Source: a bacterium (lineage in GTDB: Bacteria; Zhuqueibacterota; Zhuqueibacteria; Zhuqueibacterales; Geothermadaptataceae). From it: a stretch of DNA of 64,000 nucleotides. Positions 3,609-46,581 of this stretch are shown here, piece by piece. How positions within the stretch are numbered: the stretch's first letter is position 1; every line of letters starts with the position of its first letter. The notes under the pieces were generated by a model, which did no database searches, had not been told where the DNA came from, and was given only the letters and a program-made list of their open reading frames with translations. The DNA lies in NCBI GenBank assembly GCA_024275575.1, contig JAJRYV010000134.1, positions 1 to 64,000 on the forward strand, read 5' to 3'. The position numbers and the translations under genes were made by a program.

Positions 3609-3633
3609 AATTGCCGAATGACGACTTAGCCTG

Positions 3634-3740
3634 CTCTATTCATAAACCTTATTGTTTGCCTGCGGAGTGCTTTACCTTTCTGCAATGCGAGTTGCAGTCC
3701 ATAAAGGGGCTGCACTCCGGCGTTAACAAATTATCTATTA
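3634..3740 (+). repeat. Dispersed repeat family I, copy A (107 bp)
   Basis: Aligns without gaps over 107 bases to 58376-58482, with about 19 differences (roughly 82 percent identity). It contains an inverted repeat, CGGAGTGC with GCACTCCG, enclosing a smaller stem CTGCAA/TTGCAG. In the other copy the outer stem changes to CGGAGTGT with GTGCTCCG, which still pairs through G-U, suggesting folding matters at the RNA level. Both copies sit in gene-free spacers. Confidence 0.75.
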
Positions 3741-3998
3741 GTCTGAATAGTTCTCACGCGGAGACGCAAAGCAGGAAAAGAAAAGGTTTAAATAGTGTCC
3801 ATCCGGGTTTCCGTCATTCCGTCATATTTTTAGCCGAAACGAAGTTCGGCCAGCAACCATGAAGCAAAATCCGTTTTTTGTAGCTTCAACCAGGCGTGGA
3901 TTCCCGATAAAATCATTTGGGAATGACGTGTAGAGATACGTTTTCGTTCACGCACCAAATATGCTATCCATTCGGGGCATAGTTGGTAAATTAAGAGC

Positions 3999-4060
3999 GT
4001 AAACTATTTGAAAACAATGATGATATAACGTCCGCTGCGGAATGAATCCCGCAGCTATTT
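3999..4060 (+). repeat. Dispersed repeat family II, copy A (62 bp)
   Basis: Matches 37764-37825 without gaps over 62 bases with about 12 differences. Its right end is a hairpin, GCTGCGG and CCGCAGC around a short AT-rich loop. The left part resembles the GGCTTAATC-AAAAGTAA head seen in family III, so the families look modular. Confidence 0.7.
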
Positions 4061-4175
4061 AAAAAAATTGCCGGAAGGCGGCTCAATTATCAAGCTCGTT
4101 TCGGCGAGGTTCGGTTTACGTCGCGGCATATTTCAATATGCCGCGGGCGTCTTAACCCCAATAATTAAGGGAAAC

Positions 4176-4661
4176 ATGTCCGTTTCAATCATCGTTGCCC
4201 TGGCGCGCAATCGTGTCATTGGTGCGAATAACCGATTACCCTGGCGATTATCCGATGATCTCCAATTGTTCAAAAAAACGACGCTGGGGCATGCGATCAT
4301 CATGGGGCGAAAAACCTGGCAATCCATCGGCCGGGTTTTGCCGGGACGGGAAAATATCGTTTTGACACGCGATCAAAAATTTCAGGCACCGGGCTGCGTT
4401 GTCGTCCATTCCCTGGAAGAAATTTTGAAGAGCAAAAGGCCGGAAGATGAATGTTTCATTATCGGCGGGGCCTCGCTTTATGAATCGGCATTGCCAATCG
4501 CGTTTAAACTCTATCTCACAGAAATCGACGCTGTTGTCGAAGGTGATGTCTACTTTCCCGCGTTTGATTACGACGAGTGGCAGGAAATTTATCGCCGGAA
4601 ATTTGTAAAGAACGAAAAAAACCAGTATAATTTCACTTTTCGAATTATGCAGCGAAAATAA
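4176..4661 (+). CDS. folA: Dihydrofolate reductase
   Basis: Reduces dihydrofolate to tetrahydrofolate with NADPH, completing the thymidylate cycle begun by thyA upstream. The 161-residue protein starts SVSIIVALARNRVIGANNRLPW, the family's N-terminal folate and cofactor loop, and carries MGRKTWQSIGR and FIIGGASLYESAL, both DHFR landmarks. The ATG at 4176 is chosen because it has AAGGGA just upstream and gives the normal DHFR N-terminus; the frame is open further upstream but that part has no homology-like features. A homoserine dehydrogenase gene follows after 23 bases, so the two probably share a transcript. Confidence 0.95.
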   Translation: MSVSIIVALARNRVIGANNRLPWRLSDDLQLFKKTTLGHAIIMGRKTWQSIGRVLPGRENIVLTRDQKFQAPGCVVVHSLEEILKSKRPEDECFIIGGASLYESALPIAFKLYLTEIDAVVEGDVYFPAFDYDEWQEIYRRKFVKNEKNQYNFTFRIMQRK

Positions 4662-4684
4662 GAATTGAATTGTTTGGGAAAATC

Positions 4685-5683
4685 ATGCTTAATAATAAAA
4701 AAGAGATCGGTATCGCTTTATTTGGATTTGGAACCGTTGGCCAGGGGGTGGCGGAAATTTTTCAGTTAAAAAAAGAAAAGATCGAAAATATTTGCAGAAA
4801 AAAACTGCAGATAACAGGCGTTGCGGTTCGCAATATGGGGAAAAAACGGACGATTTCACTGCCGCAAAATATCTTTACAACCGACATCGCTACACTGATC
4901 GCACAGGAAAATGTTGATATTGTTTTTGAATTGATGGGCGGGATTAAGGAAGCAAAACGCTGCGTTTTACAGGCATTGCAGGCAGGGAAACCGGTGATCA
5001 CAGCAAATAAAGCTTTGCTTGCCGAACATGGCAAGGAGATTTTTACCTGTGCCCGGGAAAATGGCCTGCCGTTGGGATTCGAAGCTTCCGTCGCTGCCGG
5101 TTTGCCGATCATCAATATTTTGCGCAATGACCTGGCGAGCACACAAATCATCGAATTGCAGGGCATTATCAACGGCACGACCAATTTCATCCTGTCGCAA
5201 ATGCAGGAGAAGGAGCAGTCTTACGATGAAGCCTTTGCCCTTGCCCGCAGCCTGGGTTATCTTGAGGCAGACCCGAAGCTCGATGTCGACGGCTGGGATG
5301 CAGCGCATAAGCTGGTGATTCTCGCTTCTATCGTTTTTCAAAAGTATTTCAGTGTTGATGATGTCGATCGCGAAGGGATTTCAGGCATCACAGCGGAAAA
5401 AATGCGCGCAGCACGAGCTGCGGGACAGGTGATTAAGCTCATCGCCTCGGCACGTGCTGAAAAGGGTGAAATAAAATTGGCTGTTTGCCCGCAATCTTTG
5501 CCCGAAAATCACCGCCTTGCCACTGTCGATGGCGGTATGAGCGCCGTCTGGCTGCGCGGTGATCTCATTGGGGAATCGTTTTTTATCGGGCCTGGGGCAG
5601 GGGCTTTGCCCACGGCCTCAGCGGTGGTTTCGGATTTAATCGCTATGTTACGCGACCCACAAATCGCCGGATATGGTTTTTGA
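4685..5683 (+). CDS. hom: Homoserine dehydrogenase, short form without ACT domain
   Basis: Reduces aspartate semialdehyde to homoserine with NAD(P)H, the branch step to threonine and methionine. Visible are the Rossmann motif GFGTVGQG near the N-terminus, VITANKALLA, INGTTNFIL, the catalytic region GYLEADPKLDVDGWDA and the C-terminal GPGAGALPTASAV. The protein has about 332 residues and ends right after the catalytic domain, lacking the regulatory ACT domain of the roughly 430-residue form, so threonine feedback may be absent. An in-frame TTG at 4670 is an alternative start; ATG 4685 has GGGAA close upstream. It follows folA by 23 bases. Confidence 0.93.
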   Translation: MLNNKKEIGIALFGFGTVGQGVAEIFQLKKEKIENICRKKLQITGVAVRNMGKKRTISLPQNIFTTDIATLIAQENVDIVFELMGGIKEAKRCVLQALQAGKPVITANKALLAEHGKEIFTCARENGLPLGFEASVAAGLPIINILRNDLASTQIIELQGIINGTTNFILSQMQEKEQSYDEAFALARSLGYLEADPKLDVDGWDAAHKLVILASIVFQKYFSVDDVDREGISGITAEKMRAARAAGQVIKLIASARAEKGEIKLAVCPQSLPENHRLATVDGGMSAVWLRGDLIGESFFIGPGAGALPTASAVVSDLIAMLRDPQIAGYGF

Positions 5684-5878
5684 CACGATGATTCGTTGAG
5701 CCTGCATGATCAGACCCGCATTTCAGATGTGGTGACTAGTTCGATAATAAGCAATATTGTGCCAATGCTTAGCCTGCATCATTCATGAATTCTGGGAAAT
5801 AACCTGATAATCAATTGATTTTAGTTGACCTGAAGTATGGTTAAAAACTTTATTTTTTATTAAAAAACAATCTCACCG

Positions 5879-5963
5879 AGTCACTGAGACGCAGAGTTTT
5901 GTTTTTAAATATTTAATACTGTTTTTCTCTGCGCCACTGCGTCTCCGCGAGAACAATAAAGGT
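5879..5963 (-). repeat. Dispersed repeat family IV, copy A
   Basis: Read on the minus strand this sequence (CTCGCGGAGACGCAGTGGCG ... CTCTGCGTCTCAGTGAC) matches 54541-54627 on the plus strand over almost its whole length. The ends pair with each other, so it can form a long imperfect hairpin. It directly follows the stop codon of the outer-membrane protein gene on the minus strand and may work as a transcript end or stabiliser. Related material lies at 56895-56995. Confidence 0.65.
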
Positions 5964-6847
5964 TAAAAATTATAGACGAAATCGACGTAAGGGGCAAGGA
6001 AAAACTTATTCGCACCAATGACTGACCACATGGCAAGATCCACCGACATGCGTTCACCAAACAGGCGAATACCGAAGGAAACCAGCGGGTTATCGACCTC
6101 CGGGAAAATCCAGTTTTCGCTGACCAGCGACAGGCGTTCGGAGGTGCGCGTTTCGAAGCCAAGCATGATCATCGGTTTATCGGCCAGATCGCCATCTGCG
6201 AATCCGTAACCCGCGCCGACGGTGAAATTGGCATCTTCGCCACCGAAGGTACTGACGCCATAGGCGATGCCCACCACACCATTATCATCACCCGGCACAT
6301 TGATCACCAGTAGCCCACCGGCAATATTGAGTTTCTCTGATTGCAGCAAGCCAGCTTTCGGGGTGAAATAAAAAATTTGGCTATCGAGGCCGATGCCTGG
6401 AATCAGTGAAATGCCACCGCCGATAGTGAATATATCGGATATACCAAAGGCAATGCCGGGGAACAAGACGTAATAATCTGAAAAATAGCCTTTGCCTCCA
6501 CCGACCATTCTGCCGGTGGGAGCGAAAAACAGACGGGTATTGTTGGGGTTGCGGAACCAGAGATCGCCATAATCACTCTTTGTGTACTCGATTGTGCGCA
6601 GCGACTTGATATCCTTTTTCTTGATCGGCAGTAAACCGAGGGATGATTTGAAAACGATTTTATCATCACTAACGCCGACGATACGCCCTTTGAGTTTAAC
6701 ACCGTCCATCATTTCGAGAATCTGGACGTCGTTGGAATCGGGAATGGTATATTCTCCTGCGTATGGTTTCGCCTGCTGGGCGAAAGCAGAAGATGAGAGA
6801 GCAAACAGGAAAATGATAACCGGGGAAATGAATTTCGTAAACTGCAT
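5963..6847 (-). CDS. Predicted outer-membrane beta-barrel protein with N-terminal LSm-like segment
   Basis: Not a named family. ATG 6847 is preceded by GGAGG at the ideal distance. Residues 1-23 form a clear signal peptide (SPVIIFLFALSSSAFAQQ). Residues about 40-85 (DGVKLKGRIVGVSDDKIVF ... IKKKDIKSLRTI) resemble the small beta-barrel sensor-like segment common in exported proteins of this group. The rest alternates glycine-rich hydrophobic strands and ends VDFVYNF, with a terminal aromatic residue typical of outer-membrane barrels. It lies 52 bases downstream of the OmpR-type regulator and on the same strand, so it could be an output or sensor of that system; that link is inference. Confidence 0.7.
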   Translation of the reverse strand: MQFTKFISPVIIFLFALSSSAFAQQAKPYAGEYTIPDSNDVQILEMMDGVKLKGRIVGVSDDKIVFKSSLGLLPIKKKDIKSLRTIEYTKSDYGDLWFRNPNNTRLFFAPTGRMVGGGKGYFSDYYVLFPGIAFGISDIFTIGGGISLIPGIGLDSQIFYFTPKAGLLQSEKLNIAGGLLVINVPGDDNGVVGIAYGVSTFGGEDANFTVGAGYGFADGDLADKPMIMLGFETRTSERLSLVSENWIFPEVDNPLVSFGIRLFGERMSVDLAMWSVIGANKFFLAPYVDFVYNF

Positions 6848-6899: not shown

Positions 6900-7604
6900 T
6901 CACTGCTGAATCTCAGGTGGGTTCTGCATAAATTTATATCCGGCAGCATGCATGGTGAGAAGATGGCGCGGTTCAGCCGGGTTGTCTTCAATTTTTTTTC
7001 GCAGTGACAAAATGTAATTATCTACCGTACGTGTTGTGGGGAAGGCCTCGTATCCCCACACTTCTTCCAAAAGGGTGTCGCGGGAGACGACCTCGCCTTC
7101 GTGTTCGGCAAAATATTGCAGGATTTTCAGTTCCTTGTTGCCTAACACGATAATTTCGCCGTTGCTTCGGCTCATTTCCTGCTTTTTAAAATCTACGTGT
7201 TTATCACCAAAGGAAAAATTCACGATGGTTTTCTGGTGTTCGCCGGTTCGGCGCAAAATCGCTTTAATGCGTGCCAGCACTTCGCGCACGCTGAAAGGTT
7301 TGGTGACATAGTCGTCGGCGCCGAGTTCGAGAAGTACAACTTTATCGAGTTCCTGGCTTTTGCTCGTCAAAACGATGATCGGTGTTTTTATGCCTTTCGC
7401 CCGCAGGTCGCGGCAAACTTCTTCACCGTTTTTTTTCGGCAACATTAAATCGAGCAAAATCAAATCGAGGTTTTCCGTTTGGGCGCTTTCAAAACCACGT
7501 TCGCCGTCCCGGGCGGTGAGTACCACATAATGTTCTGATTTTAAACTATCGATCAGCCCCGCCATGATGGCCGGATCATCTTCGATGATCAATAGGCGTT
7601 TCAT
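6900..7604 (-). CDS. OmpR/PhoB-family response regulator
   Basis: A DNA-binding regulator of 234 residues. The receiver domain carries the acidic pair in IIEDDP, the phosphoacceptor Asp in LILLDLMLP, and the Thr/Lys switch residues in VLTSKS and VTKPFS. A winged-helix domain follows, with the C-terminal signature TVDNYILSLRKKIE and HAAGYKF. The ATG at 7604 is chosen because it gives a standard receiver start; the frame is open further upstream but only as antisense of the kinase. It overlaps the end of the kinase gene by 29 bases, implying translational coupling and partnership. The outer-membrane protein gene follows. Confidence 0.93.
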   Translation of the reverse strand: MKRLLIIEDDPAIMAGLIDSLKSEHYVVLTARDGERGFESAQTENLDLILLDLMLPKKNGEEVCRDLRAKGIKTPIIVLTSKSQELDKVVLLELGADDYVTKPFSVREVLARIKAILRRTGEHQKTIVNFSFGDKHVDFKKQEMSRSNGEIIVLGNKELKILQYFAEHEGEVVSRDTLLEEVWGYEAFPTTRTVDNYILSLRKKIEDNPAEPRHLLTMHAAGYKFMQNPPEIQQ

Positions 7605-10074
7605 CCTGTTTCTCCATGGGTAAAAACACGGTAAAAATGCTGCCTTTCCCGGGTTGGCTCTCCACTTTGATGTGGCCTTTGTGGGCCTCGGCGATCGTTT
7701 TGACAACCTGCAATCCAAGGCCTGCCCCGCCGATACGTCGTACGCATTCATCCGGCGCCCGATAAAACGGCTCGAAAATGTTTTGGTGTTCATTTGCTGC
7801 GATGCCGATGCCCTGATCGCTGACAGCCAAGATAGCATAACCATTTTGCTGCGATGATGCAACTGCTATTTTTTTCGCATCGCCGGAATATTTCATCGCA
7901 TTGTTGACCAGATTATTGATGATCCTGATCAGACTGTCCGGGTCGGCGGTGACCGGTAGAGAATGTGGCGACAGGTCGATCTGCACCTCGAATGCTTCCA
8001 TTTTAAAAATATAGGCAAAAGGTCTGAGGGCTTTGTTGATTATTTTGTTTAAGTCGAGTGACTGAAATTGAAAGGTTTTGCTGCCGCGTTCGATTTTGGC
8101 AAAATCCAGCACTGTGCCGATGAGGCGGTTGAGCCGATCTGCCTCGCCATCGATAATTGTCGCATATTCTTTAATTTTTTGTTTTGAAATCGTCTTGTTT
8201 TGCAGCATTTCAGCAAACATTTTTATCGCTGTCAGCGGCGTTTTTAATTCATGTGTGACTGATGAAATAAACTGGCTTTTGGTTTTGCTGAGCTCGGCCA
8301 GCGATTGCGCCAATTCCTGCTCACAAATCAGTTTTTGCTGCAAGCGCAGCCGGCCGATCGTTTCTGCGGTCTGGTGGACGCAGGCGCGCAACAAATCGAT
8401 ATCTTCCAGACTATAGCGAAAACCGGATTTTTTGGGTCCCAGAAGTAACACGGCCTGCGGTTTTTTGTTTTCATCTGCCAGAAAAAAAAGCAGCGCCGGG
8501 GATTGGGCGGACGTTAGTTTCAGTGCCCATTCGGCGTAATCGGCGCGCTGTTCGAGAAAGTTAAAATTAGCGAGAATCGGTTTTTCAACAACGGTGGGTG
8601 TATGCCATAATTCAGTATTCTTCAGTGTCGGCGGCAAATGGGAAGAAAAGACAAGCTCACAGGTTTTGCCCTCCGTTTTATATTCATAAAAACCACTGAA
8701 CTCCGGTAAAATATTTTTTTCAATATGCTGCAGCAGAATTTTTCCGGTATCGCTCACAGCTAAACAATGCGACAATTTTTCATTTATTTGCAGCACGGCC
8801 TCGCGGTAATTATAACGCACACGGAAAAAAGTTTTATCGACCAGTGTCTGGATTTTTTGCCGCAAAGGCTCAAAAAATATGGCGATGATGGCTGCCACAA
8901 TCGCAGAAGATGCGACGGACAACTCGACGGTAAATGTACTGACAAAATAGGCCAGGGCGCCAATCACAAGCGTATAAATTGTTGCGATGATCAGAAAAAT
9001 GATCGCATAAACCACGCTGCGATTAAAAATGATATCGATATCGAGCAAGTGATGGCGCACGATGGAAATAGCAAAACTGATGGGTACGACGGCACAGATG
9101 AGCAAAACGAATTCTTCCGGCAGCAAACCGTGCGACAAGACAATTTGTGGAACCGTCCAGAGAAAAATGATCGCAAAAGCACCGATGGCCAGGCCGAGCA
9201 GAATCCAGCGCAGCCTGCGCCGGTCTTCTTCTTCCGGCGCGCTGAAGTAGGAATGCACGAATTGCGCCAGAGCAAAGAGCAGGCCGGCGGAAAAAAGCAC
9301 GCGGAAGATGTTGAACCAGAAAGTAAAACGGTCATACCATTCAAATGAAAGCCGGATTGTTGCTATCGAATAGGCTATTGTCAGCCAGGGAACGGCGGTG
9401 ATATACAAGCCGGATAGTAGCCGGGACAAAGTTTGTGGCGGGAATTTTTTCTCACGCGGATAAATACCGGCAAATTTCAGAAAAAATATCGGCGTTGCGG
9501 CATAGGCGCTGAGATAGATGAATTGTAGAAATTGCGCGACTCCCGGCAATCCGAGATTATAGGATCGCCAGGGGAAAAAATACATGATGGCGATCGCCAG
9601 TAAGTTATAGTAGAAAATCCGTGCTTCCGGTTTATCCGGCCGTTTCAAGTTCACAAACAGACCCAGGGCGAGAAAAAGCAGGCCGAAAGGGATTGTGATG
9701 AGGAAGTATCGCAAGGAGTAATGCGGCCGGAGTATGGCAATCGTGGCATACTCAAAATCATCGTGCAAAAAGCGCAGCGTCACCTCATCACCATTTTTTT
9801 TGCCGTCGATGAGCAATTCGAGTGAATTTAAAGAATGGATTGCATAGCCGTCACAGGTGATTAGCAGATCACCCGGAGTGAGTTGGCTGCCCGGTGTTTG
9901 GGAATCCGCAATTTTGAACTGCCCTGATGCTGTTTGATCGAGAGCAAATGGCAAAGCCGGTCTCTGCAGGCTGAACCATGTTCCGGCCAGACATAAAAGG
10001 CCCACAACGAGCGGAACCGATATTTGGTTAAATGTGATTTTCACCGGAGCAATATGATTTAGTGGTGGTAGCAA
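7576..10074 (-). CDS. Membrane histidine kinase with PDZ-like, multi-pass membrane, GAF and kinase modules
   Basis: About 832 residues. After an N-terminal membrane segment, residues about 45-105 (LTPGDLLITCDGYAIHSL) look like a PDZ-type loop-strand module outside the membrane, as known in ComP-like kinases. Eight or more hydrophobic segments follow to about residue 400, then a GAF-like region (about 430-590), the phosphoacceptor His608 in SSVTHELKTPLTAIK, and an ATPase domain with NNLVNNAMKYS, VSDQGIGI and GGAGLGLQVV. It overlaps the OmpR-type gene, its probable partner. The start is uncertain: the longest frame begins with TTG, with a GTG 10 codons later, and neither has a convincing ribosome site. 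Confidence 0.9.
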   Translation of the reverse strand: MLPPLNHIAPVKITFNQISVPLVVGLLCLAGTWFSLQRPALPFALDQTASGQFKIADSQTPGSQLTPGDLLITCDGYAIHSLNSLELLIDGKKNGDEVTLRFLHDDFEYATIAILRPHYSLRYFLITIPFGLLFLALGLFVNLKRPDKPEARIFYYNLLAIAIMYFFPWRSYNLGLPGVAQFLQFIYLSAYAATPIFFLKFAGIYPREKKFPPQTLSRLLSGLYITAVPWLTIAYSIATIRLSFEWYDRFTFWFNIFRVLFSAGLLFALAQFVHSYFSAPEEEDRRRLRWILLGLAIGAFAIIFLWTVPQIVLSHGLLPEEFVLLICAVVPISFAISIVRHHLLDIDIIFNRSVVYAIIFLIIATIYTLVIGALAYFVSTFTVELSVASSAIVAAIIAIFFEPLRQKIQTLVDKTFFRVRYNYREAVLQINEKLSHCLAVSDTGKILLQHIEKNILPEFSGFYEYKTEGKTCELVFSSHLPPTLKNTELWHTPTVVEKPILANFNFLEQRADYAEWALKLTSAQSPALLFFLADENKKPQAVLLLGPKKSGFRYSLEDIDLLRACVHQTAETIGRLRLQQKLICEQELAQSLAELSKTKSQFISSVTHELKTPLTAIKMFAEMLQNKTISKQKIKEYATIIDGEADRLNRLIGTVLDFAKIERGSKTFQFQSLDLNKIINKALRPFAYIFKMEAFEVQIDLSPHSLPVTADPDSLIRIINNLVNNAMKYSGDAKKIAVASSQQNGYAILAVSDQGIGIAANEHQNIFEPFYRAPDECVRRIGGAGLGLQVVKTIAEAHKGHIKVESQPGKGSIFTVFLPMEKQDETPIDHRR

Positions 10075-10235: not shown

Positions 10236-11675
10236 TTATGTCGGGATGTGTTCATTATCTTGTATTTTGGCGGGCGCAATATCATTTTCATCGTCATTTT
10301 CACCATTTTTATTCGGGTAAAGGCCGAGGTCTTTCAGCTTGTCGCGGAAGTGACCGCGGTCCATTTGCGCTAATCGTGCGCCTTTGCTGATGTTACCGCC
10401 AGTTTTTCGAATGATATCGCCAAAATATTGTTTCTCAAAAAGAAAACGCGCCTCACGAAAGGTTTTCCCCGTAAAAACATTATTTCCCGACGGGTCATTT
10501 TCTGCGGCAGTTTTTTCCGCGATATTATCGAGGTGAAGCGTATTGCTTTTTTCGAACAGCATCGCACGGATGACGATATTTTCCAGCTCCCGCACGTTGC
10601 CGGGAAAACTGTAGCGTTGCAGTTTTTCCAGGGATGATGTGGCAATTTTTTCAATCGATTTGCCGTAAATCCCATTATAGGTTTTAATAACATGATCGAC
10701 GATCAGGGGAATGTCTTCCGTGCGTTCGCGCAAGGGCGGGATATTGATCACGAAGCGTTCCAGCCGGTGATACAGGTCCTCCCGAAATGAATTTTCTTCG
10801 ATACTTTGGAGCAAATTACGGTTTGTCGCGGCAATGATACGTACATCGGTCTGCAGCTCTTCTTTGCCGCCAATCCTTTCGAAGGATTTGTTTTGTAAAA
10901 TACGGAGAAATTTTGGCTGCAAAATACCGTTCAGTTCGCCGATTTCATCAAGAAAAATGCTCGATTGATGCGCCCGTTCAAATTTGCCAATTTTGCGCTG
11001 GTCGGCCCCGGTAAAAGCACCTTTCTCATGGCCAAACAATTCGCTTTCTGCCAGGTTTTCCGGTAAGGCACTACAATTGACGATGATGAGCGGGTTTTTT
11101 GCGCGTTTGCTGTGTGTATGCAAAGCATGGGCGACGAGCTCTTTGCCGGTGCCGGTTTCTCCCAAAATGAGCACCGATTCGTCTGTTTGCGACAGGGCTT
11201 TAATTTCTTCGAAAACCTGCATAAGCCCGGCGCTTGCACCGATGATATTGGAAAACTGGTAATTCCGGCGCGCTTCCTCCAACTGGAAATAAGATTCCAG
11301 GTTGCGGCGAAAATACTCTATCGCCAGTTTGATTTTTTTATCCAGAAGATTAAAATCGATAGGTTTGCTAAAAAAATCGAACGCCCCGTTACGTCGGGCC
11401 ATCTCCGGATCATAGAGATTGGTATAACCTGTGAAGACGATGATGCAAATATCCGGATAGTCCGAATGCAGCTGTTTGAGCAGCTCGTAGCCATCCATAT
11501 CCGGCAGTTTCAAATCGAGAAGGATGACGGAAAAATTCATCTTTTCTATGGTGGCGAGCGCTTCGGCTGCATTACCGGCGTGGGTTGTTGCAAAACCGCC
11601 GCTGGTGAGCCATTTATCGATTTTTTGCCGCATTTCCGGCTGGTCATCGATAATTAAAATTCTGTTTGAATTCAT
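10236..11675 (-). CDS. NtrC-family sigma-54-dependent response regulator
   Basis: A 479-residue transcription activator. It has a receiver domain with Asp in VILLDLKLPDMDG and switch Lys in FSKPID, then an AAA+ domain with Walker A GETGTGKE, the sigma-54-contacting loop GAFTGA, and Walker B SIFLDEIGEL with arginine-finger region LYHRLERF. A Fis-type C-terminal helix-turn-helix follows (GNISKGARLAQMDRGHFRDK). A charged tail of about 30 residues ends the protein. GGGAGAG sits next to the ATG. It lies 150 bases after the ATPase/GAF kinase fusion on the same strand. The histidine kinases upstream are likely inputs; its sigma-54 target promoters were not located in this block. Confidence 0.94.
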   Translation of the reverse strand: MNSNRILIIDDQPEMRQKIDKWLTSGGFATTHAGNAAEALATIEKMNFSVILLDLKLPDMDGYELLKQLHSDYPDICIIVFTGYTNLYDPEMARRNGAFDFFSKPIDFNLLDKKIKLAIEYFRRNLESYFQLEEARRNYQFSNIIGASAGLMQVFEEIKALSQTDESVLILGETGTGKELVAHALHTHSKRAKNPLIIVNCSALPENLAESELFGHEKGAFTGADQRKIGKFERAHQSSIFLDEIGELNGILQPKFLRILQNKSFERIGGKEELQTDVRIIAATNRNLLQSIEENSFREDLYHRLERFVINIPPLRERTEDIPLIVDHVIKTYNGIYGKSIEKIATSSLEKLQRYSFPGNVRELENIVIRAMLFEKSNTLHLDNIAEKTAAENDPSGNNVFTGKTFREARFLFEKQYFGDIIRKTGGNISKGARLAQMDRGHFRDKLKDLGLYPNKNGENDDENDIAPAKIQDNEHIPT

Positions 11676-11825
11676 CTCTCCCTCATATTTTTTGATCCAG
11701 TCCTATTGTGATTCATCCTGTAATTTGTGCTTTTTGAATTTTTCAAGCAAGGTAGAAATGCCCGTAGAAATAATGCTGGATAATTCATATCCTTCTTTGA
11801 ACAGAGCGCATATCATGTGATCAAA

Positions 11826-14800
11826 TCAAACCATCGCTGGCTTTTTATACTGCTCAGTTTTTTTCAATATAGTGGAAACAATCTGGTGGATATTATACCA
11901 AAAATCATTATCGAGAACCACAAAGCAGTCATAAGCAGTTGTGTTTATTGCCTGCGGCCTTGCTGTTGCCGAGGTCAGGATCACCGGTTTCCCCGGCAAC
12001 GCACTGCGTAATTCAGCAATAAAATCATCTGCAGTACAGGTGGCGGAATGGTCCTTTTCCAAATGGTAGTCGATGATTACCAGGTCAAATTGAGTTTCGC
12101 TGCATTTTTTAACACCATTAAGTCCAAGCATTGATCCGGTTACGATATACCCATCGTTGTGCAAATGCCGCTTCAGCTTTGACAGAATGGATTTGTCGTC
12201 ATTGATAACGAGAATTTGTGCGGCGCGGCTTTTCCGCAAACCCTTGTCATCGCTGTGCCCGTTTCTTCCTGCCGGCATGATGTTTTGGTCCGGAACCGGC
12301 AGTTCGATCATAAATGTCGTACCTTTGTTCTTTTTACTCTTGAGCCGGATTTTACCGCCATGCTCACTTTGCACGATGCGTTTTGTCAGGGCAAGGCCAA
12401 TGCCGAAGCCCTTGTTTTTAGTGGTGATAAACGGATCGAAAACACTGTTGAGTTGGTCCTGCTCAATGCCGCAGCCGGTATCGATTATGGTGATGATATA
12501 GCGATCATCTTCCAGCCGGCCGCTAACCGTAAGTTTGCCCCGGTCGCCCATCGCATCCACCGCATTGGTGATCACATTGAAAATAGCACGGGTCATTCGT
12601 GCTTTATCAACTTTCAGATAAACGGTTTCTGCCTGCACGTCTTTATTCAAAGAAATGGTGCGCCATTTTTCAATACCGAATAAAGCCAGTGCATCATTGA
12701 TGAGTTGTTTCGCCGGGACGAGCGCAAACTCGGGTTTTGAGCCGGTAGATCGGTTGTTGATATCCACTGTAAATTCTTCGATGCGGTATAAACTGCCCGA
12801 AATATCATCCAGGGCGGCATCGATGTCGCTTTGTCTGATGGTTTTTTCTTTTGCCAGTTTATGCAGCCATTGGGTTTCGGAAACGATATTGGATAAAATG
12901 TTTTTAATATCGTGCGTCAGACCGGTGATCGCTTCTTCGATCGCTGCTTTTTCCAGTGCGTTTGAAAGTCTGATTTGCGTCTGTACCAGGCCTTCGCTGG
13001 TTCGTGCGTTGTGAATGGCTAATCCTGCTTGGTGCGCCAGCCCGTTGAGCAACCGTAAATCGACATCGGTGAAATCATCGGGTTGGTTGCTTTCCATTTT
13101 TATGAGGCCTACGACGTTCTCATTGAACGGCATTGGTAAAATCAGCGCTGATTTTACCGCCGGGCTGCTTGCTTTATAATGAAGATTGTTTTGTGTATGC
13201 ATGACGCGTTGTGGTTTTCGCGTGCGAATAGCAATACTTTCGAGGTCTTCGAATGCTTTGGTCTGATGCGAAAAAATGAGCTTATGTGTCAGTGGATTTA
13301 TCGAAATTTGCACACCGGAAGTTTGGCTGCCCTCATCGAGCAAAAAGACCAAGAGGCTGCGATGCCCATTGCCCAGGGCGGCTTGCCCGACATTGCAAAC
13401 GGTGCGCAAAACGGTTTTAATGCCAATACTGGAATTGATGGTTTTGCCGATTTTGTATAATGCTTCAGTTTCTTTGTAGCGTGCCTCATTGGTATCGCAG
13501 AGTTTGCCGATGGTCAACGCAACCGCTGCATTGGTCGTAACCGTCATCAAAGCTTGGCTATCGTTGGAATCAAAATCTTCGGGCAAAAGGCTTTGGATGC
13601 ACAAGGCGCCCAATTTTTGATCGCGAAAAAACAGGGGCACTGCGATTTCCGAACGCGCATCGGCTGTCAGTTTTAAACTTTCCGGGGTCAAATCCATCTC
13701 GTTTTCGATGATCGCTTTGCCTTCGCGCAGGCAGCGGGAAACCGAGCTGGAGCTCAAAAGGGGCAGCTTTTTTTCGATTTTCAGTATCTGCAAATTTTCA
13801 TCACAGGCGGCGCGCAGGCAGAGCTCGTCTTTCTCATCATCCTGCAGAAAAAGAAAAGCCTTACGGTTGGCGCGCCCGACCATGATCAGGCATTCGCGAA
13901 TAGAAAGTTCTATGATTTTTTCCAACTTGTGCTCATGGCTGATGGCCTCGCCGATACTGGTTAGTGAAATGACCTGCTGTACCTGCCTTTCGGCAAGGCC
14001 GTATAAGCGGTATTTACGAATGGCGGAGGCGGTGAGCGTCGCCAGCGTTGAAAAAACCTTATGCTGCATTTCATCATAAAGTGCCGATCGGCGGTCGCAA
14101 ATCACCAGGCAGCCGGAAATTTCGCCGTCAACTTTCAACGGCAGCACGACCATCGCTTTCGTGGTCTTCCAGACCGGCAGATAGTGGCCTGATTTCTGTG
14201 CATTTGTTGTGATAAACGGCTCCCCTGTTTGCAAAACTTCTCCGACGATGTCGATTTGTTCATCGGGAAATTCCGGAGGCGGAAAATTGTAGGCAGGGGC
14301 GTCTTTAGCAAATTTATAAATGAATTCACCGTTTTGCTGTTTGCGAAAAACGATGTAATTAAGACTCGAATTGGTGATGTGCTGTACGGTTCGTAATATG
14401 GCTTCAAAAGCATTGCCATATTCGATATTGGAATCGAGGAAATGAATGAGGTCTTCCAGTAGTATGACATATTTTCCATATTGTGAAGTGCGGTTCTGCA
14501 GTGGCCGCGTGCGAATGACCAGCGAGAGTTGCTGGGCTAATACTTCCAGTATTTTAACTTCACTCTCGTTAAAAGTGGAAGGCTTGCGCAGCGTTATGTT
14601 CAACACGCCCAGAACCTGCCCTTCCACCGCCAAAGGCAACGAAAGCATGGCGCCGAGATTATGCTTTAATGCGCTGCTCTGCCCGACATAATCGGGGCAT
14701 TCGACGGTATTGGTGATATCATGGATATAGCGTGATTGTCCTGTTGCTGCAACTTTCCCGGCGATTCCCTCGCCGATATTGAGACGAAAACTGCGCTGCA

Positions 14801-16151
14801 CATCCGGTTCGATGCCCACTGAGGCTTCTACTTTCAGGGTTTCAGTTGTGGGGTCGAGCAGCATTATTGAGCAATTCTGCACACCGCGCAGTGAAGAGCT
14901 CAGGTGTGTCAAAATTTCGTCATAGGGATTTGCCGAGTTCAGGGCAGCCATGATGGCTTCGCTGTTAACCTGCAGCGCCGTCAGGGCGCTTTTTGCCTCG
15001 ATTTGTTCGGTGATCACATTGAAATAGAGCTCGCGGGATTTGCGAAAATCACCCTTTTTGAAAAATTGATCGGCGATGCGTTCGCTGGTAAAATAATCCT
15101 GAAATATTTTTTGGAAGATCGGATTACGGATAAAATAGTTACCGTTTTTTTCGACTAAGGCGCCGATGCTCACCAACGGCTGTAAATCACGATCATAAAA
15201 ATGCCCCTGTAAAACGCCATTTTTAAGCACACGCACGATATTTTCAATAAAAACTTCGTTTTTTTCCAACCGCCATATGATGTTGTCGACGACGCTGTCA
15301 CCTTCACGCAGAATTTCTGCAATGATGCTTTTAGCGCTTTTCAGGCTGAATACTGGTTTTATATCCTCAAGATTAGCTGCTTCCAAAATTTTAGAGCAGA
15401 TTTTTTGAATGAGATAGGCCATGCCGCAGGTCTGTTCAAAAATGAGCTGGATAAAGCCGTGCTCAATTTCGATATTAAGCTTTTCGGCGATGCTGCGCAG
15501 CTGGTGCTCAACCTGTGAAAATGAAAAATCCTCCAAAAAAATTCGGAAAGTACATTCTGTAAAGACGATTTCGTCACCAAGCTGTAAATTATTGCGCCCC
15601 AGGCAGCCGGCGATAAAAAACTGGAAATGCCGGTTGCCTTTTTCGTTTTCAAATTCATGGGAAAGTCGCAGCAGTTCGTTTAAGACGTAGTGTAAAAAAT
15701 GCCGGGTTATCGCATCGAGCCCGTCAAAAATAAAAATGTATTGCCGGTTGCGCATAACGGTGCGGTCGAGTTGCAGAAAATATTGCGACAGGCAGGTTTT
15801 TTTATTATATAGTTTTTCCTCAAATTCAGCTTTTCGCCCCTTTGCCGGTGTGAATTTGCGCGCATTGTTTTGAATGATCTGCCGCAAATCGAAAAAGGAA
15901 CGCAAACGATTGCCGGCAAAATTAACATGGATAAAGTTGGCATTGGGATGGGACGATTTATATGCTTTTTTCACGGCAGCAATAAAAGTGGTTTTCCCGA
16001 CTTTCCTGCCGCAACAGGAAGAAAGCCACAGGCCGCGATCGAGCGCCGAGCATGCTTTGTTGATCTCATTTTTCCGTTTGATTAAAACCAGGTGGTCTTT
16101 ATCGACATGTAGAGCACGTTTATAGATAAATGGTATTTTGCACATCTTCAT
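11826..16151 (-). CDS. STAND/AAA-type ATPase - four GAF - histidine kinase - receiver fusion
   Basis: A cytoplasmic 1441-residue hybrid sensor with no membrane segments. Residues 48-55 are a P-loop (GRKVGKTT) and 139-147 a Walker B (IFIFDGLDA), followed by helical and winged-helix-like sequence to about 370, the layout of an ORC/STAND-type ATPase. Four GAF-like domains follow, roughly 395-560, 575-720, 735-880 and 905-1060. His1080 in GLTHDIKNILSN begins the kinase core, with ATPase motifs ITNAVDAMGD, IDTGCGI and GFGIGLALTKRIV. A C-terminal receiver has Asp1361 in LVIIDYHLE but shows VVLDND where a Lys-Pro is expected. Its ATG overlaps the stop of the lone receiver gene by 4 bases, so all three upstream genes are coupled. 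Confidence 0.88.
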   Translation of the reverse strand: MKMCKIPFIYKRALHVDKDHLVLIKRKNEINKACSALDRGLWLSSCCGRKVGKTTFIAAVKKAYKSSHPNANFIHVNFAGNRLRSFFDLRQIIQNNARKFTPAKGRKAEFEEKLYNKKTCLSQYFLQLDRTVMRNRQYIFIFDGLDAITRHFLHYVLNELLRLSHEFENEKGNRHFQFFIAGCLGRNNLQLGDEIVFTECTFRIFLEDFSFSQVEHQLRSIAEKLNIEIEHGFIQLIFEQTCGMAYLIQKICSKILEAANLEDIKPVFSLKSAKSIIAEILREGDSVVDNIIWRLEKNEVFIENIVRVLKNGVLQGHFYDRDLQPLVSIGALVEKNGNYFIRNPIFQKIFQDYFTSERIADQFFKKGDFRKSRELYFNVITEQIEAKSALTALQVNSEAIMAALNSANPYDEILTHLSSSLRGVQNCSIMLLDPTTETLKVEASVGIEPDVQRSFRLNIGEGIAGKVAATGQSRYIHDITNTVECPDYVGQSSALKHNLGAMLSLPLAVEGQVLGVLNITLRKPSTFNESEVKILEVLAQQLSLVIRTRPLQNRTSQYGKYVILLEDLIHFLDSNIEYGNAFEAILRTVQHITNSSLNYIVFRKQQNGEFIYKFAKDAPAYNFPPPEFPDEQIDIVGEVLQTGEPFITTNAQKSGHYLPVWKTTKAMVVLPLKVDGEISGCLVICDRRSALYDEMQHKVFSTLATLTASAIRKYRLYGLAERQVQQVISLTSIGEAISHEHKLEKIIELSIRECLIMVGRANRKAFLFLQDDEKDELCLRAACDENLQILKIEKKLPLLSSSSVSRCLREGKAIIENEMDLTPESLKLTADARSEIAVPLFFRDQKLGALCIQSLLPEDFDSNDSQALMTVTTNAAVALTIGKLCDTNEARYKETEALYKIGKTINSSIGIKTVLRTVCNVGQAALGNGHRSLLVFLLDEGSQTSGVQISINPLTHKLIFSHQTKAFEDLESIAIRTRKPQRVMHTQNNLHYKASSPAVKSALILPMPFNENVVGLIKMESNQPDDFTDVDLRLLNGLAHQAGLAIHNARTSEGLVQTQIRLSNALEKAAIEEAITGLTHDIKNILSNIVSETQWLHKLAKEKTIRQSDIDAALDDISGSLYRIEEFTVDINNRSTGSKPEFALVPAKQLINDALALFGIEKWRTISLNKDVQAETVYLKVDKARMTRAIFNVITNAVDAMGDRGKLTVSGRLEDDRYIITIIDTGCGIEQDQLNSVFDPFITTKNKGFGIGLALTKRIVQSEHGGKIRLKSKKNKGTTFMIELPVPDQNIMPAGRNGHSDDKGLRKSRAAQILVINDDKSILSKLKRHLHNDGYIVTGSMLGLNGVKKCSETQFDLVIIDYHLEKDHSATCTADDFIAELRSALPGKPVILTSATARPQAINTTAYDCFVVLDNDFWYNIHQIVSTILKKTEQYKKPAMV

Positions 16152-16567
16152 TGCTCCTGAATGCTGGCTGCCAATTGGCGGAATGTACCCACAACTTCAT
16201 CGTAGGAAACCGGTTTTTTCAAGTAATGCAGAACGTTCAATCCCCGGATTTTTTCGCTGATGAGATGGTTTGGTACGGCTGTCAGAATGACGATTTTGAT
16301 ATCTGTGGGACAGCCGCGAATGAGGCCGGACCGGATATCTGTGAGTAATTTCAAACCGGCTTCTCGTTGCCGGATGGGTTCGCCGTTGGTTTTTCCGGCG
16401 GAGAACATGATATCGAGAGAAAGCAGGTCATATTTTTCGCGATTCAAAAATTCGATAGCCTGTTGATAGCTTTCTGCTAAATCACAGATGATATCGCTGC
16501 GACGTAATGCCGGAAAATACGCGTCAACCCCCCAGGGTTCATCTTCAACAAACAAAATACGCGTCAT
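16148..16567 (-). CDS. Stand-alone response-regulator receiver
   Basis: A 139-residue single receiver without an output domain. The acidic pair is in FVEDEP, the phosphoacceptor Asp in LLSLDIMF, and the switch residues are in ILTAVP and YLKKPVS, so it should be phosphorylatable. An unusual insert (SAGKTNGEPIRQREAG) follows the phosphoacceptor strand. It overlaps both neighbours by four bases (ATGA junctions), sandwiched between two giant histidine kinases, and is best read as a phosphotransfer or allosteric shuttle between them. The target is inferred. Confidence 0.9.
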   Translation of the reverse strand: MTRILFVEDEPWGVDAYFPALRRSDIICDLAESYQQAIEFLNREKYDLLSLDIMFSAGKTNGEPIRQREAGLKLLTDIRSGLIRGCPTDIKIVILTAVPNHLISEKIRGLNVLHYLKKPVSYDEVVGTFRQLAASIQEQ

Positions 16568-19500
16568 TTTCTGCTCCTTTTTTGTGCTTTGGGCAATAAA
16601 ATATTGACCGATGTCTGATAATCCTGAAAGTCACGTATTTTATGCCGGTTGTTCGACATGGGTTTGCTATCAACATAGATCTGGCCGCTGTGTTGTTCTA
16701 CGAAATCTTTGCATATCTTCAAACCGATTCCGGTGCCTGAAATATAACGGCGTGAATCCCGGGCTTTACTTCTTAAAAAACCCTGGAAAATTTTTTCTTT
16801 CTCATCCGGTGGAATACCCAATCCGCGGTTGCTGATCGTCACCAGAATATGTGAAGAATGTTCGTACCCTTTAATGTTGACCAATTGCCGGTAGTGTGAA
16901 TATTTTACAGCGTTTTCGATGACGTTGCTCAAGACCTGTTCAATCTTGGTTTTATCGATTTCAATTTTCGGTAATCGCCTGATGTTATCGCGCACGGCAA
17001 AACGAATCCCGCGTTCCAGCGCGCGTAACTTGTAGTTATCCACACAATTCATGATGATTTTAAAGATGGAATGCTTGTGGAAGTCGCAGCCATCGCTGAT
17101 GCGTGTTTTTTGCGTCAATGAGAGTGAATTATCGACTTGCCTTTTAGCGCGGTAGACTTCTTCCTGAATTATCTGAATGTATTTATCGATTTCTTTGCCG
17201 CTGTAGCTTTCCTGCAGGTGATCGCGCAGGCCACCGATTTGTGTCAAAATATTGTGCAAGGGGTTGCGGAATTCGTGTGCGGTTTCAGCGATCGTCGTTT
17301 CCAGCCGGTCGATGGTGAGCAGGCCGTGGATGTTGCGCAACGCAATGGCGGATTGAGCGGCAAATGCGTGCAGCACTTTCATGTGCTCCTGCACGATTTC
17401 ATTATTCTGATGTCGAATTTCTTTATTATCCGAAAGGTCTATTTGCAAAACGCCGATGGGCTCTCCTTTGGCGATCAGTGGAATGACATATTGCGAATTG
17501 ATTTGCGCCCGTCGGACAAGATTTTTATCACAGCGCAAATCCTTGCCGCAATTGGCGATAAATTCGGCTTTTTTAGAACGCAGGATTGCCGCACAGATAT
17601 TTTTATCTGTCAATCGATACTTCGAGTGCGGGAGAATTTTTTTCCAGTTATCACCCAGGGCATATTTCCCCTCAATTCGTTGCGCATCCCGTTCGACGAG
17701 GGAAAGCATGCCCTTGTCGAAACCAACGCTTTTCAGACCCTGAAAAATATGATGAATCGCTTCTTCTTCAGTCGTCGTATTGAGCAATTTAATGCTGGCT
17801 TCATTCAGCGCATCGAGTTGTTTTTCCAGGTTCAACCGGACTTTGATGTCATCTTTGAGCTTGTTGTGCAGTTCGCGGTGAGCCAGTGCAAGTCCTGTCT
17901 GCCTGCTCAAATGCTCAATAAATTTTTTCTCATCTTCAGTGATTTCTTTGCGAAAATTTTTTGAATAACCTACCTCGAGTGTGCCGATGATCTCACCTTC
18001 TTTCAGGATGGGTGTGATCAGCCGTACATAATTATCATGATTGAACTCATTATAAAGATATTCATCGAGCCGTTCATCATAACGATCGATATAAAATTGC
18101 TCGCCGTGGCGAACGACCCACGCCTGAATATCTTTGCTGTCGAGGGAGTGGTTTGCCAACCGAATAAACTCGCCGTCCACATTGCGTCCGTGCACACAAC
18201 TGATGGTGTTTTTTTTCTTGTCGATCAGTGAAATCCAGGCAAACTGAAAATCCAGATATTTCGTTACTGCATCCAGCAGGCTTTCGTAGACGACTTCATT
18301 ATCGATCTGGCTGCTCACCGTGGTTTTCTGTACACGTTCGGTCGCTTTTAAACGTTGGATGAGTCTGTTCTTTGCTTCGAGAAGATTCGCATTATACAGC
18401 GCCACAGCAGCCTGGTTGGCCAAAGTTTCGAGATAGGAAATATCAGCCTGTGAAAAGGCATTTTTTTCCGCACTGTCGACGCTAAAAACCCCTAACCTGC
18501 ATGAATTGCCAGTCTCGTTATCATGATAGGTGATCGGAATGATGATTTTTGAACGAACCGCAGGGAAAATAGCGTTCCATTTGATTTTTGGGTCAGCATG
18601 CACATCTCCGGTGTAGTAAGGCTTCTGGTGCATGAAGACATGGCCGGTAAATCCTTTATCGATCGGTGTGCCCACCTCCGGGCATAACTCACCGGGGATT
18701 TTGGAGCTGAGCGCTTCGAACTTTAGCAGGTTTTCATCTTTGCTGTATAATTTGAAATAGGCCCGGTTGGATTGTGGAATTTGCAAACCAAACTCGGTAA
18801 CCTGCAGCAGCAGCAGGTTTGTACTTTTTAAATCGAGTAAGGCTTGACCGATTGTCAGCAAAGCACGGGATTTACTCAGATCTTTGGCGATGCCGATGCT
18901 GCCGTTAAAACCACCCTGCTCGTCTTTGATTGTGCTTACCGAAATGGATGCATAAACAGGTTTCCCTTTTTGATTTGATAAAATAGTCTCATGGTTTGAA
19001 ATATTGCCATCCGCACTGTGGCGCAATTTATTTTTGATCTCCCGCGCCCGCTCCAAATTGCTATTCGTCTCATCGGAATAATAAACGAGCGTTACACTTT
19101 TGCCGAGCATATTGCCGAACATCGATTCTGCGCCGGGGTTCATGTAGGTGATTTTGCCAAATTTGGAGCTGACAATCACCGGGTCCGGGGTCGAGTCGAT
19201 AATTAACCGGTGTTGTTTTAATTTGTTGAGCATGTGTGATTTCACAAAAGATGTTTGCACATTTTCACTAAAAATTTGCAAAAGCGGCAAATCAAAACTA
19301 TTTGTGAAAGCTGTGGCCCTGCCCGAGATGTCGTGGGAAACAGACTTGTTGTAAACGACGATCATGCCGTCGATATTACCTTTGCTGTCGAAAAATGGAC
19401 AAGCGATGGCGGATTTGACCGGCCCTGATTTTAAAAAATTGAGCGGGATTTCACCATTTGCATGGGCTGCTTTGGCAAAGCAGGAACGAGGGGCAATAAA

Positions 19501-20262
19501 TATTTTTTGTGATTGCAGGGCAGGCGAAATAATGCTGCTATCGTTATTTCGCAAATTTTTTAAGGGCAATGTTTTAAACAACTGCAGTTTGCCGGAACGA
19601 TTATAACCGGCATAAAAAGATGCCTCCTCTTTTTTTAATAACCAGAGACAACTAAACTGCGCGTCCAAAAGTTGTCGTGTCTTTTCTCCGACAAAATCGT
19701 ATTGGCAGGATAATGATTTTTTTAATGGGTTAATCGCCAGCTGATCGATCAGATGAGCTAATAGTTCGAGCTTTTTTATCACATAGTCGACATCCCGGAA
19801 TGCATTTTTCCCATCGATGAGTGATGCACAAACCCGACTGGCCTGTTCGATGACCTTTTTTTGTGCATAGCCGAAATTCTTCTGCGCCGATATTTCAAAC
19901 AATAAAACCCCGAGAATTTCCCTGTTCGCCGTCTCGACGGGGAAAAATAACTTATGTTTGTTATTCGCAGATTTGTAAAATGATTTGAGTTGTAGATTTT
20001 TATACAATCGGAACGGGATTTTGAGGTCGGTCTGTTGAAGGGATTTTGTGATTCCTGCAGGAAGGTGCTGCACCGGCAAACAGCATTTTTCCTGACATAT
20101 AATTCGCCTTGATTCGCATTTGCTTGAATGAAGACAAAGTAGATTTTTTCCGTCGTCGTCTATTTGCAGCAAAAAAACTGCTTCGGTTTTGAGAATTGTC
20201 AGCAGCGATCGGAAAAGATCGTGCAAGAGATAACGATCTGGATTTGCAAGGTTTCGGATCAT
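16564..20262 (-). CDS. Multi-GAF/PAS cytoplasmic histidine kinase
   Basis: A 1232-residue soluble kinase, first gene of the block. By eye it holds GAF-like domains at about 10-150 and 165-345, a PAS domain at about 350-465 (STPDPVIVSSKFGKITYMNP), three further GAF-like domains at about 470-630, 645-800 and 815-985, His996 in AETAHEFRNPLHNILT, and an ATPase domain with NVIENAVKYS, SNRGLGIPPDE and GTGIGLKICKDF. The first GAF region has a cysteine-rich stretch (CESRRIICQEKCCLP) that could bind metal or sense redox; this is speculation. No membrane segments. It ends by a 4-base overlap with the lone receiver gene. Confidence 0.9.
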   Translation of the reverse strand: MIRNLANPDRYLLHDLFRSLLTILKTEAVFLLQIDDDGKNLLCLHSSKCESRRIICQEKCCLPVQHLPAGITKSLQQTDLKIPFRLYKNLQLKSFYKSANNKHKLFFPVETANREILGVLLFEISAQKNFGYAQKKVIEQASRVCASLIDGKNAFRDVDYVIKKLELLAHLIDQLAINPLKKSLSCQYDFVGEKTRQLLDAQFSCLWLLKKEEASFYAGYNRSGKLQLFKTLPLKNLRNNDSSIISPALQSQKIFIAPRSCFAKAAHANGEIPLNFLKSGPVKSAIACPFFDSKGNIDGMIVVYNKSVSHDISGRATAFTNSFDLPLLQIFSENVQTSFVKSHMLNKLKQHRLIIDSTPDPVIVSSKFGKITYMNPGAESMFGNMLGKSVTLVYYSDETNSNLERAREIKNKLRHSADGNISNHETILSNQKGKPVYASISVSTIKDEQGGFNGSIGIAKDLSKSRALLTIGQALLDLKSTNLLLLQVTEFGLQIPQSNRAYFKLYSKDENLLKFEALSSKIPGELCPEVGTPIDKGFTGHVFMHQKPYYTGDVHADPKIKWNAIFPAVRSKIIIPITYHDNETGNSCRLGVFSVDSAEKNAFSQADISYLETLANQAAVALYNANLLEAKNRLIQRLKATERVQKTTVSSQIDNEVVYESLLDAVTKYLDFQFAWISLIDKKKNTISCVHGRNVDGEFIRLANHSLDSKDIQAWVVRHGEQFYIDRYDERLDEYLYNEFNHDNYVRLITPILKEGEIIGTLEVGYSKNFRKEITEDEKKFIEHLSRQTGLALAHRELHNKLKDDIKVRLNLEKQLDALNEASIKLLNTTTEEEAIHHIFQGLKSVGFDKGMLSLVERDAQRIEGKYALGDNWKKILPHSKYRLTDKNICAAILRSKKAEFIANCGKDLRCDKNLVRRAQINSQYVIPLIAKGEPIGVLQIDLSDNKEIRHQNNEIVQEHMKVLHAFAAQSAIALRNIHGLLTIDRLETTIAETAHEFRNPLHNILTQIGGLRDHLQESYSGKEIDKYIQIIQEEVYRAKRQVDNSLSLTQKTRISDGCDFHKHSIFKIIMNCVDNYKLRALERGIRFAVRDNIRRLPKIEIDKTKIEQVLSNVIENAVKYSHYRQLVNIKGYEHSSHILVTISNRGLGIPPDEKEKIFQGFLRSKARDSRRYISGTGIGLKICKDFVEQHSGQIYVDSKPMSNNRHKIRDFQDYQTSVNILLPKAQKRSRK

Positions 20263-20357: not shown

Positions 20358-20474
20358 GCAAATTGATGCCGAATGATTGGCATTGACGCTGCGAAAAATA
20401 TGCCGGGAGAATGGTGGATTGTTATAACTCATTGATTAATAGTTTGTTAAAGTCGATGTTCTTCTTTTGCTGGA

Positions 20475-46564: not shown

Positions 46565-46581
46565 GGCAAGCATAGTGCCAA
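46565..46581 (-). promoter_or_regulatory. Sigma-54 promoter of pspA
   Basis: On the minus strand TTGGCAC (46581-46575), five bases, then TTGCC (46569-46565): GG and GC are exactly 10 bases apart, matching the -24/-12 consensus. It lies about 60 bases before pspA and faces it; the adjacent PspF-like gene supplies the required activator. Confidence 0.88.

What the first reader, a model, noticed from the sequence alone, without database searches (positions are those of the whole stretch)
11826..16151. P-loop ATPase fused to a histidine kinase
GRKVGKTT and IFIFDGLDA mark a nucleotide-switch ATPase before four GAF domains. STAND-type ATPases are known mainly in defence and regulators (MalT, Apaf). 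As the input module of a histidine kinase it could act as a threshold switch or a phage/stress sensor. The missing membrane segment makes this a cytosolic alarm candidate.
Basis: partly seen in the sequence, partly recalled or inferred. Interest (0 to 1): 0.7.

Follow-up and report, generated by a model that had tools for sequence, protein, structure and literature searches.

The report
Sensor kinase with STAND-like ATPase module
A soluble bacterial sensor kinase from an uncultured phylum carries at its front an ATP-binding module related to immune and regulatory switch proteins; it sits in a conserved signalling operon, some of whose relatives lack the module, and similar ATPase-kinase fusions are already known elsewhere.

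Summary
The P-loop is invariant in all eight homologues. Two predicted models match archaeal ATPases PABY2304 and SSO1545 best, then Orc/Cdc6. A homologue passes Pfam AAA_35, a family that elsewhere heads a classical ATPase-WD40 protein. It is therefore STAND-like but diverged: the lid proline (GHP in AAA_35 relatives) is lost, and no long sensor repeat follows. The gene is the third of a translationally coupled, conserved operon: soluble PAS/GAF kinase, receiver, this kinase, sigma-54 NtrC regulator. The operon with the module occurs in 8 of 82 genomes of one uncultured phylum (KSB1/Calditrichaeota records). Three further genomes have the same operon without the module and with the last receiver as a separate gene, so the module is separable. 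Best reading: a nucleotide-switched oligomerisation module gating a cytosolic phosphorelay to sigma-54 transcription (mechanism inferred). No direct evidence links it to phage defence. Pkinase-AAA_16-GAF-kinase fusions are known, so this is a new variant of a known kind.

The parts
11826..16151 (-). ORF for STAND-like ATPase / 4xGAF / histidine kinase / receiver-like protein, 1441 aa
14991..16151 (-). residues 1-387: P-loop NTPase, lid, winged helix and one TPR-like hairpin (STAND-like / AAA_35 branch)
15987..16013 (-). Walker A, residues 47-55 CGRKVGKTT (Lys53); GKT invariant in all homologues
15711..15740 (-). Walker B, residues 138-147 YIFIFDGLDA (Asp143); second acid of AAA+ (DE) replaced by G/S/T, acid at +3
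15411..15431 (-). residues 241-247 TCGMAYL: position of the G-H-P lid motif of AAA_35 relatives, proline lost
14991..15218 (-). residues 312-387: winged helix and TPR-like helix pair leading into GAF1
14511..14939 (-). GAF1 (about residues 405-547)
   Evidence: borders approximate
13977..14474 (-). GAF2 (about residues 560-725)
   Evidence: borders approximate
13482..13964 (-). GAF3 (about residues 730-890)
   Evidence: borders approximate
13017..13469 (-). GAF4 (about residues 895-1045); absent in the G009/G010/G013 homologues
   Evidence: borders approximate
12762..12974 (-). DHp region with phospho-acceptor His1080 (THDIKN), codon 12912-12914
12291..12608 (-). HATPase_c with N, G1, F, G2 boxes (residues 1182-1287)
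11847..12230 (-). receiver-like domain (residues 1308-1435): Asp1361 and T/S kept, first acid replaced by Asn, Lys lost; separate gene in G070, G077, G022, G032
16148..16567 (-). stand-alone receiver REC1 (canonical residues), overlaps its neighbours by 4 bp on both sides
16564..20262 (-). HK1: soluble PAS/GAF histidine kinase, first gene of the operon
10236..11675 (-). NtrC-type sigma-54 response regulator (receiver, GAFTGA AAA+), last conserved gene of the operon
20390..20405 (-). sigma-54-like site CGGCATATTTTTCGCA, about 130-143 bp before HK1; aligns with TGGCACATTTTTCGCA before HK1 in G001
   Evidence: weak on its own, site counts are near chance

Best explanation
It is a soluble, receiver-carrying sensor histidine kinase whose N-terminus is a STAND-like (AAA_35 / archaeal ATPase_2 branch) nucleotide-binding and oligomerisation module, built in the same order as MalT: ATPase and winged helix first, sensor in the middle, effector last. 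Shown: domain composition, conserved P-loop, intact kinase core, conserved operon, absence of the module in three orthologous operons. Inferred: in the resting state the module holds nucleotide and keeps the kinase off. A cytosolic cue, read by the GAF domains or by the module itself, lets the module switch to its ATP state and assemble, so that the kinase domains phosphorylate His1080 in trans. The phosphoryl group passes to REC1 and/or the NtrC-type regulator, which activates sigma-54 promoters, possibly including that of its own operon. The fused receiver, lacking the conserved Lys, acts as a regulatory rather than an ordinary relay receiver.
For: Fold: two models match PABY2304/SSO1545. 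P-loop invariant, Walker B kept. AAA_35 over its cut-off in the G070 homologue, and AAA_35 heads a WD40 STAND-type protein in Chlorohelix. Kinase boxes intact. Gene order HK1-REC1-this-NtrC in the window, G001, G013, G009, G010 and G070 (partial at contig ends in G014, G011); 4-bp overlaps HK1/REC1/this gene. rpoN present in the genome. Sigma-54-like block conserved before HK1 in the genus. STAND-less orthologues in three genomes show that the module is separable from the GAF-kinase core.
Against: No biochemical data. The lid proline is lost and the AAA+ catalytic Glu position is G/S/T, so a switch by hydrolysis may be weak. The long sensor repeats usual in STAND proteins are absent. Orthologues without the module mean that it is not needed for kinase signalling as such. 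The window domain itself passes no Pfam cut-off. Cognate pairing of kinase and regulators is inferred from the operon only.
Confidence: 0.5

Rival explanations
1. The ATPase domain is a cellular energy (ATP/ADP) gauge: it binds nucleotide with little hydrolysis and reports the adenylate ratio to the kinase, without assembling a higher-order ring.
For: P-loop strictly kept while the catalytic Glu position and the lid proline are degraded; the whole four-gene operon is soluble.
Against: A winged helix and TPR-like hairpin typical of protein-protein switching are kept.
Confidence: 0.2
2. The domain is a diverged docking platform: nucleotide binding only stabilises the fold and the domain recruits a partner (for example HK1) to the kinase.
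For: It is absent from three orthologous operons; it evolves faster than the kinase core (19% against 34% identity to G070).
Against: GKT, Walker B acid and fold are kept over large divergence, which suggests a working nucleotide site.
Confidence: 0.2
3. It is a phage or stress immune alarm in which the STAND module senses an invader and the phosphorelay mounts a defence.
For: STAND modules are common in immunity (PMC7159879). Two STAND-less sister operons encode a receiver fused to a CAP12/Pycsar-type TIR-like domain (G022 25.9 bits against cut-off 24.7; G077 21.3, below), with the Glu of NVxFExG kept.
Against: No PADLOC match for the ATPase domain, no phage match, housekeeping neighbours, single copy with conserved order; no TIR-like gene in the operons that carry the STAND module.
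Confidence: 0.08

Closest known systems
Pkinase-AAA_16-GAF-(PAS)-histidine kinase dual kinases (cbSTKIII/HstK type; Burkholderia and Rhizobium plasmid examples L093, L094)
   Same: Large sensor kinases with a STAND-type ATPase, then GAF, HisKA and HATPase_c; the cyanobacterial ones with STK, GAF and HisKA are described in PMC2176072.
   Different: They have an N-terminal Ser/Thr kinase and an AAA_16 ATPase with one GAF; here there is no Ser/Thr kinase, the ATPase is of the AAA_35 / archaeal type, there are four GAFs and a fused degenerate receiver.
MalT and IniR (STAND transcription regulators)
   Same: Order ATPase, then sensor, then effector; IniR's ATPase is modelled on SSO1545 (PMC5760070), the same template found here.
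   Different: The sensor is GAF instead of a helical MalT domain III; the effector is a histidine kinase instead of a LuxR-type HTH.
AAA_35 (PF14516) 'AAA-like domain' proteins, e.g. AAA_35-WD40 of Chlorohelix (L092) and AAA_35 proteins L018, L039 of the same phylum
   Same: Sequence-level relation through the G070 homologue (28.9 bits, cut-off 27, nearly full profile).
   Different: The HK-fused clade has lost the lid proline (GHP to Gx[AGL]Y) and the DE of Walker B; output is a kinase.
PABY2304 (2qen) and SSO1545 (2fna) archaeal ATPases
   Same: Best structural matches over the whole NTPase and winged helix.
   Different: Only 14-15% identity; these are stand-alone proteins.
STAND-less GAF4 histidine kinases of G022, G032, G077 (L072-L074)
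   Same: Same operon place, same four GAFs and kinase core.
   Different: No ATPase module; last receiver is a separate gene.

Membership tests
STAND NTPases | P-loop NTPase core with Walker A | tested here: met
STAND NTPases | Walker B hhhhD with downstream acid | tested here: met
   DG/DS-h-D/E in all but G010/G011 (E-T-F-E)
STAND NTPases | winged helix C-terminal to the lid | tested here: met
   models; near full-length structural matches with 2qen and 2fna
STAND NTPases | GxP motif in the lid region | tested here: not met
   TCGMAYL; Gly kept, Pro lost in all HK-fused members, present (GHP) in L018 and L039
STAND NTPases | superstructure-forming sensor repeats | tested here: not met
   only one TPR-like hairpin; GAF domains follow
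STAND NTPases | ADP/ATP-driven oligomerisation | not testable with these tools
   needs protein
AAA_35 (PF14516) | profile score over the curated cut-off | tested here: inconclusive
   window domain: no match; G070 homologue 28.9 bits against 27
Histidine kinases | H-box with phospho-acceptor His | tested here: met
   invariant H/D/I in seven sequences; Pfam HisKA below cut-off
Histidine kinases | N, G1, F, G2 boxes of the catalytic domain | tested here: met
Hybrid histidine kinase with a working receiver | acidic pair, Asp, T/S and Lys of the receiver | tested here: not met
   Asp1361 and T/S kept; first acid Asn, Lys absent in fused and split versions
Pkinase-AAA_16-GAF-HK dual kinases | N-terminal Ser/Thr kinase and AAA_16 ATPase | tested here: not met
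   neither found over cut-off in the window protein; both present in L093 and L094
Known anti-phage systems (PADLOC) | match of the ATPase domain to a defence model | tested here: not met
   no match; matches of neighbours are to generic sigma-54 AAA, receiver and kinase parts

The most novel reading that the evidence does not exclude
The operon is a cytosolic alarm phosphorelay in which a STAND-like switch gates a histidine kinase, and whose output in sister lineages includes a phosphorylation-controlled TIR-like effector: STAND and TIR parts of immunity joined through two-component signalling rather than direct fusion.
Probability: 0.07. Interest if true: 0.8.

Novelty: new variant of a known kind. 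Interest (0 to 1): 0.42.

Why it matters
STAND modules are studied mostly as direct effectors or DNA-binding regulators. Here one is attached to a histidine kinase in a conserved operon, and close relatives have the same kinase without it. That natural with/without set makes it testable what a STAND-like switch adds to a two-component sensor (a threshold, cooperativity or a new input). It is a variant of known ATPase-GAF-kinase fusions, not a new class.

Tried and rejected
Single-sequence search of the GTDB contig collection gave no relative; the alignment search gave four records, all labelled Calditrichaeota or KSB1, so spread beyond this phylum is not excluded. Sequence search of the PDB gave only short P-loop, ORC/Cdc6 or TPR matches. 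Phage records: none; plasmids: only the GAF/kinase part of the window protein. My first sigma-54 scan had an off-by-one error and was redone; site numbers in the window are near the shuffled mean, so only sites with conserved position are mentioned. Tree of the operon without the STAND part: cannot decide between one gain with losses and two gains, because the place of G070 is weakly supported (74/81). Recent foreign origin of the module: GC 0.42 against 0.47 with SD 0.03, codon usage within range, not supported. PADLOC hits of the NtrC regulator (RtcR/PspF models) are the shared sigma-54 AAA domain. The PF14516 search of the own genome returned nothing in the genome or the 14 controls, so it is uninformative.

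Full report
Observation. The ORF at 11826-16151 on the minus strand is real, 1441 aa, and begins with ATG. Pfam gives four GAF stretches, HATPase_c, weak HisKA and a weak C-terminal receiver. Residues 1-387 give no match over a cut-off, but contain CGRKVGKTT and YIFIFDGLDA. No stretch is hydrophobic enough for a membrane helix.

Homologues. In 82 genomes of the phylum, eight carry the domain fused to GAF and kinase. Named records of the same family are labelled Calditrichaeota or candidate division KSB1. The window domain is 72% identical to its genus mate and 30-33% to other members of the order. In all of them G-K-T of the P-loop is invariant and the Walker B strand ends in D (E in two near-identical members), followed by G, S or T, a hydrophobic residue and D or E. 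The more distant G070 homologue (same class, 1278 aa) has the textbook form GPRKVGKTT / LVFDGME and passes AAA_22, AAA_14 and AAA_35 cut-offs.

Fold. Two AlphaFold2 models, the window domain (pLDDT 74) and the G070 domain with a wider alignment (pLDDT 85, pTM 0.83), both find PABY2304 (2qen) and SSO1545 (2fna) as the two best PDB matches over nearly the whole length, followed by Orc/Cdc6 and clamp loaders. SSO1545 is the template used for the ATPase of IniR, a MalT-like STAND regulator (PMC5760070). AAA_35 itself heads an AAA_35-WD40 protein in Chlorohelix, the classical STAND layout. What departs from STAND: the GHP of the lid, present in AAA_35 relatives L018 and L039, has become G-x-[A/G/L]-Y, and there is a single TPR-like hairpin rather than a repeat array. 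I therefore call it STAND-like and do not file it as a full STAND member. The list of STAND features is from my own knowledge of the class.

Kinase and receiver. The H-box (THDIKN, His1080), N, G1, F and G2 boxes are intact and conserved. The C-terminal receiver keeps the acceptor Asp1361 and T/S but has Asn for the first acid and no Lys. The same atypical domain is a separate gene in G070, G077, G022 and G032, which suggests that it belongs functionally with this kinase.

Operon. Upstream are HK1, a soluble PAS/GAF kinase, and REC1, a canonical receiver. HK1/REC1 and REC1/this gene overlap by 4 bp. Downstream is an NtrC-type regulator with GAFTGA. The same order is seen in G001, G013, G009, G010 and G070, and in part at contig ends in G014 and G011. 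RpoN is encoded on the same contig. A sigma-54-like block is the best conserved stretch before HK1 between the two genus members, and G070 has a full site TGGCATGCGACTTGCT before a small ORF and HK1. Autoregulation is a suggestion only. The flanking genes are housekeeping genes.

With and without. Searches with the kinase core and with REC1 found three more genomes (G022, G032, G077) with the same operon, in which the orthologous kinase is 910-915 aa and starts directly at GAF1. The STAND-like part is thus a separable module; gain or loss cannot be polarised. Two of these operons (G022, G077) carry an extra response regulator whose C-terminal part matches the CAP12/Pycsar TIR domain, above the cut-off only in G022, and aligns with Cap12 around NVxFExG, though not significantly.

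Function. The order ATPase, sensor, effector is that of MalT. I take nucleotide-controlled assembly gating the kinase as most likely (0.5), with an energy gauge and a docking platform as main rivals. A defence role has no direct support.

Novelty. Burkholderia and Rhizobium plasmid proteins found here have Pkinase-AAA_16-GAF-HisKA-HATPase_c, and cyanobacterial dual kinases with STK, GAF and HisKA are described (PMC2176072). The kind is therefore known. New are the ATPase branch, the lack of a Ser/Thr kinase, the operon, and the with/without set. No paper found describes this architecture, but the library is partial.

Noticed in passing
L072:5880-6791 (G077) and L073:5928-6845 (G022): Response regulator with a C-terminal TIR-like (CAP12/Pycsar-type) domain inside the STAND-less version of the operon; a receiver joined to an immune-type effector domain. 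Related TIR-like domains occur in 20 of 82 genomes of the phylum, not in the window's genome.
   Followed up: partly
45805-46506 (-), 46650-47606 (-), site ending at 46580 (-): PspA/IM30 gene with a good sigma-54-like site (TGGCACTATGCTTGCC) 74 bp upstream, next to a PspF-like sigma-54 activator: a textbook phage-shock unit.
   Followed up: partly
L042-L045; L015 about 4701-4778, L017:9414-9489: A 77-nt hairpin element, single copy in four genomes of one genus, between a sigma-54-like site and a secreted-protein gene, beside the NtrC gene of this operon in G009 and G010; folds better than shuffles (z -2.5 and -4.1).
   Followed up: partly
L018:9054-10607 with 10567-13572; L039:1861-3417 with 3395-6274: AAA_35 ATPases of about 517 aa with a C-terminal part that looks like a winged DNA-binding domain, paired with overlapping 960-1000-aa proteins holding two P-loop modules; a separate STAND-like gene pair in G038 and G077.
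   Followed up: no
7576-10074 (-): A further, membrane-bound histidine kinase with a PDZ-like domain follows the operon in the window and in G001 only.
   Followed up: no
L017:7053-8429: The NtrC-type regulator of G010 has GAFTSA in place of the GAFTGA sigma-54 contact motif.
   Followed up: no
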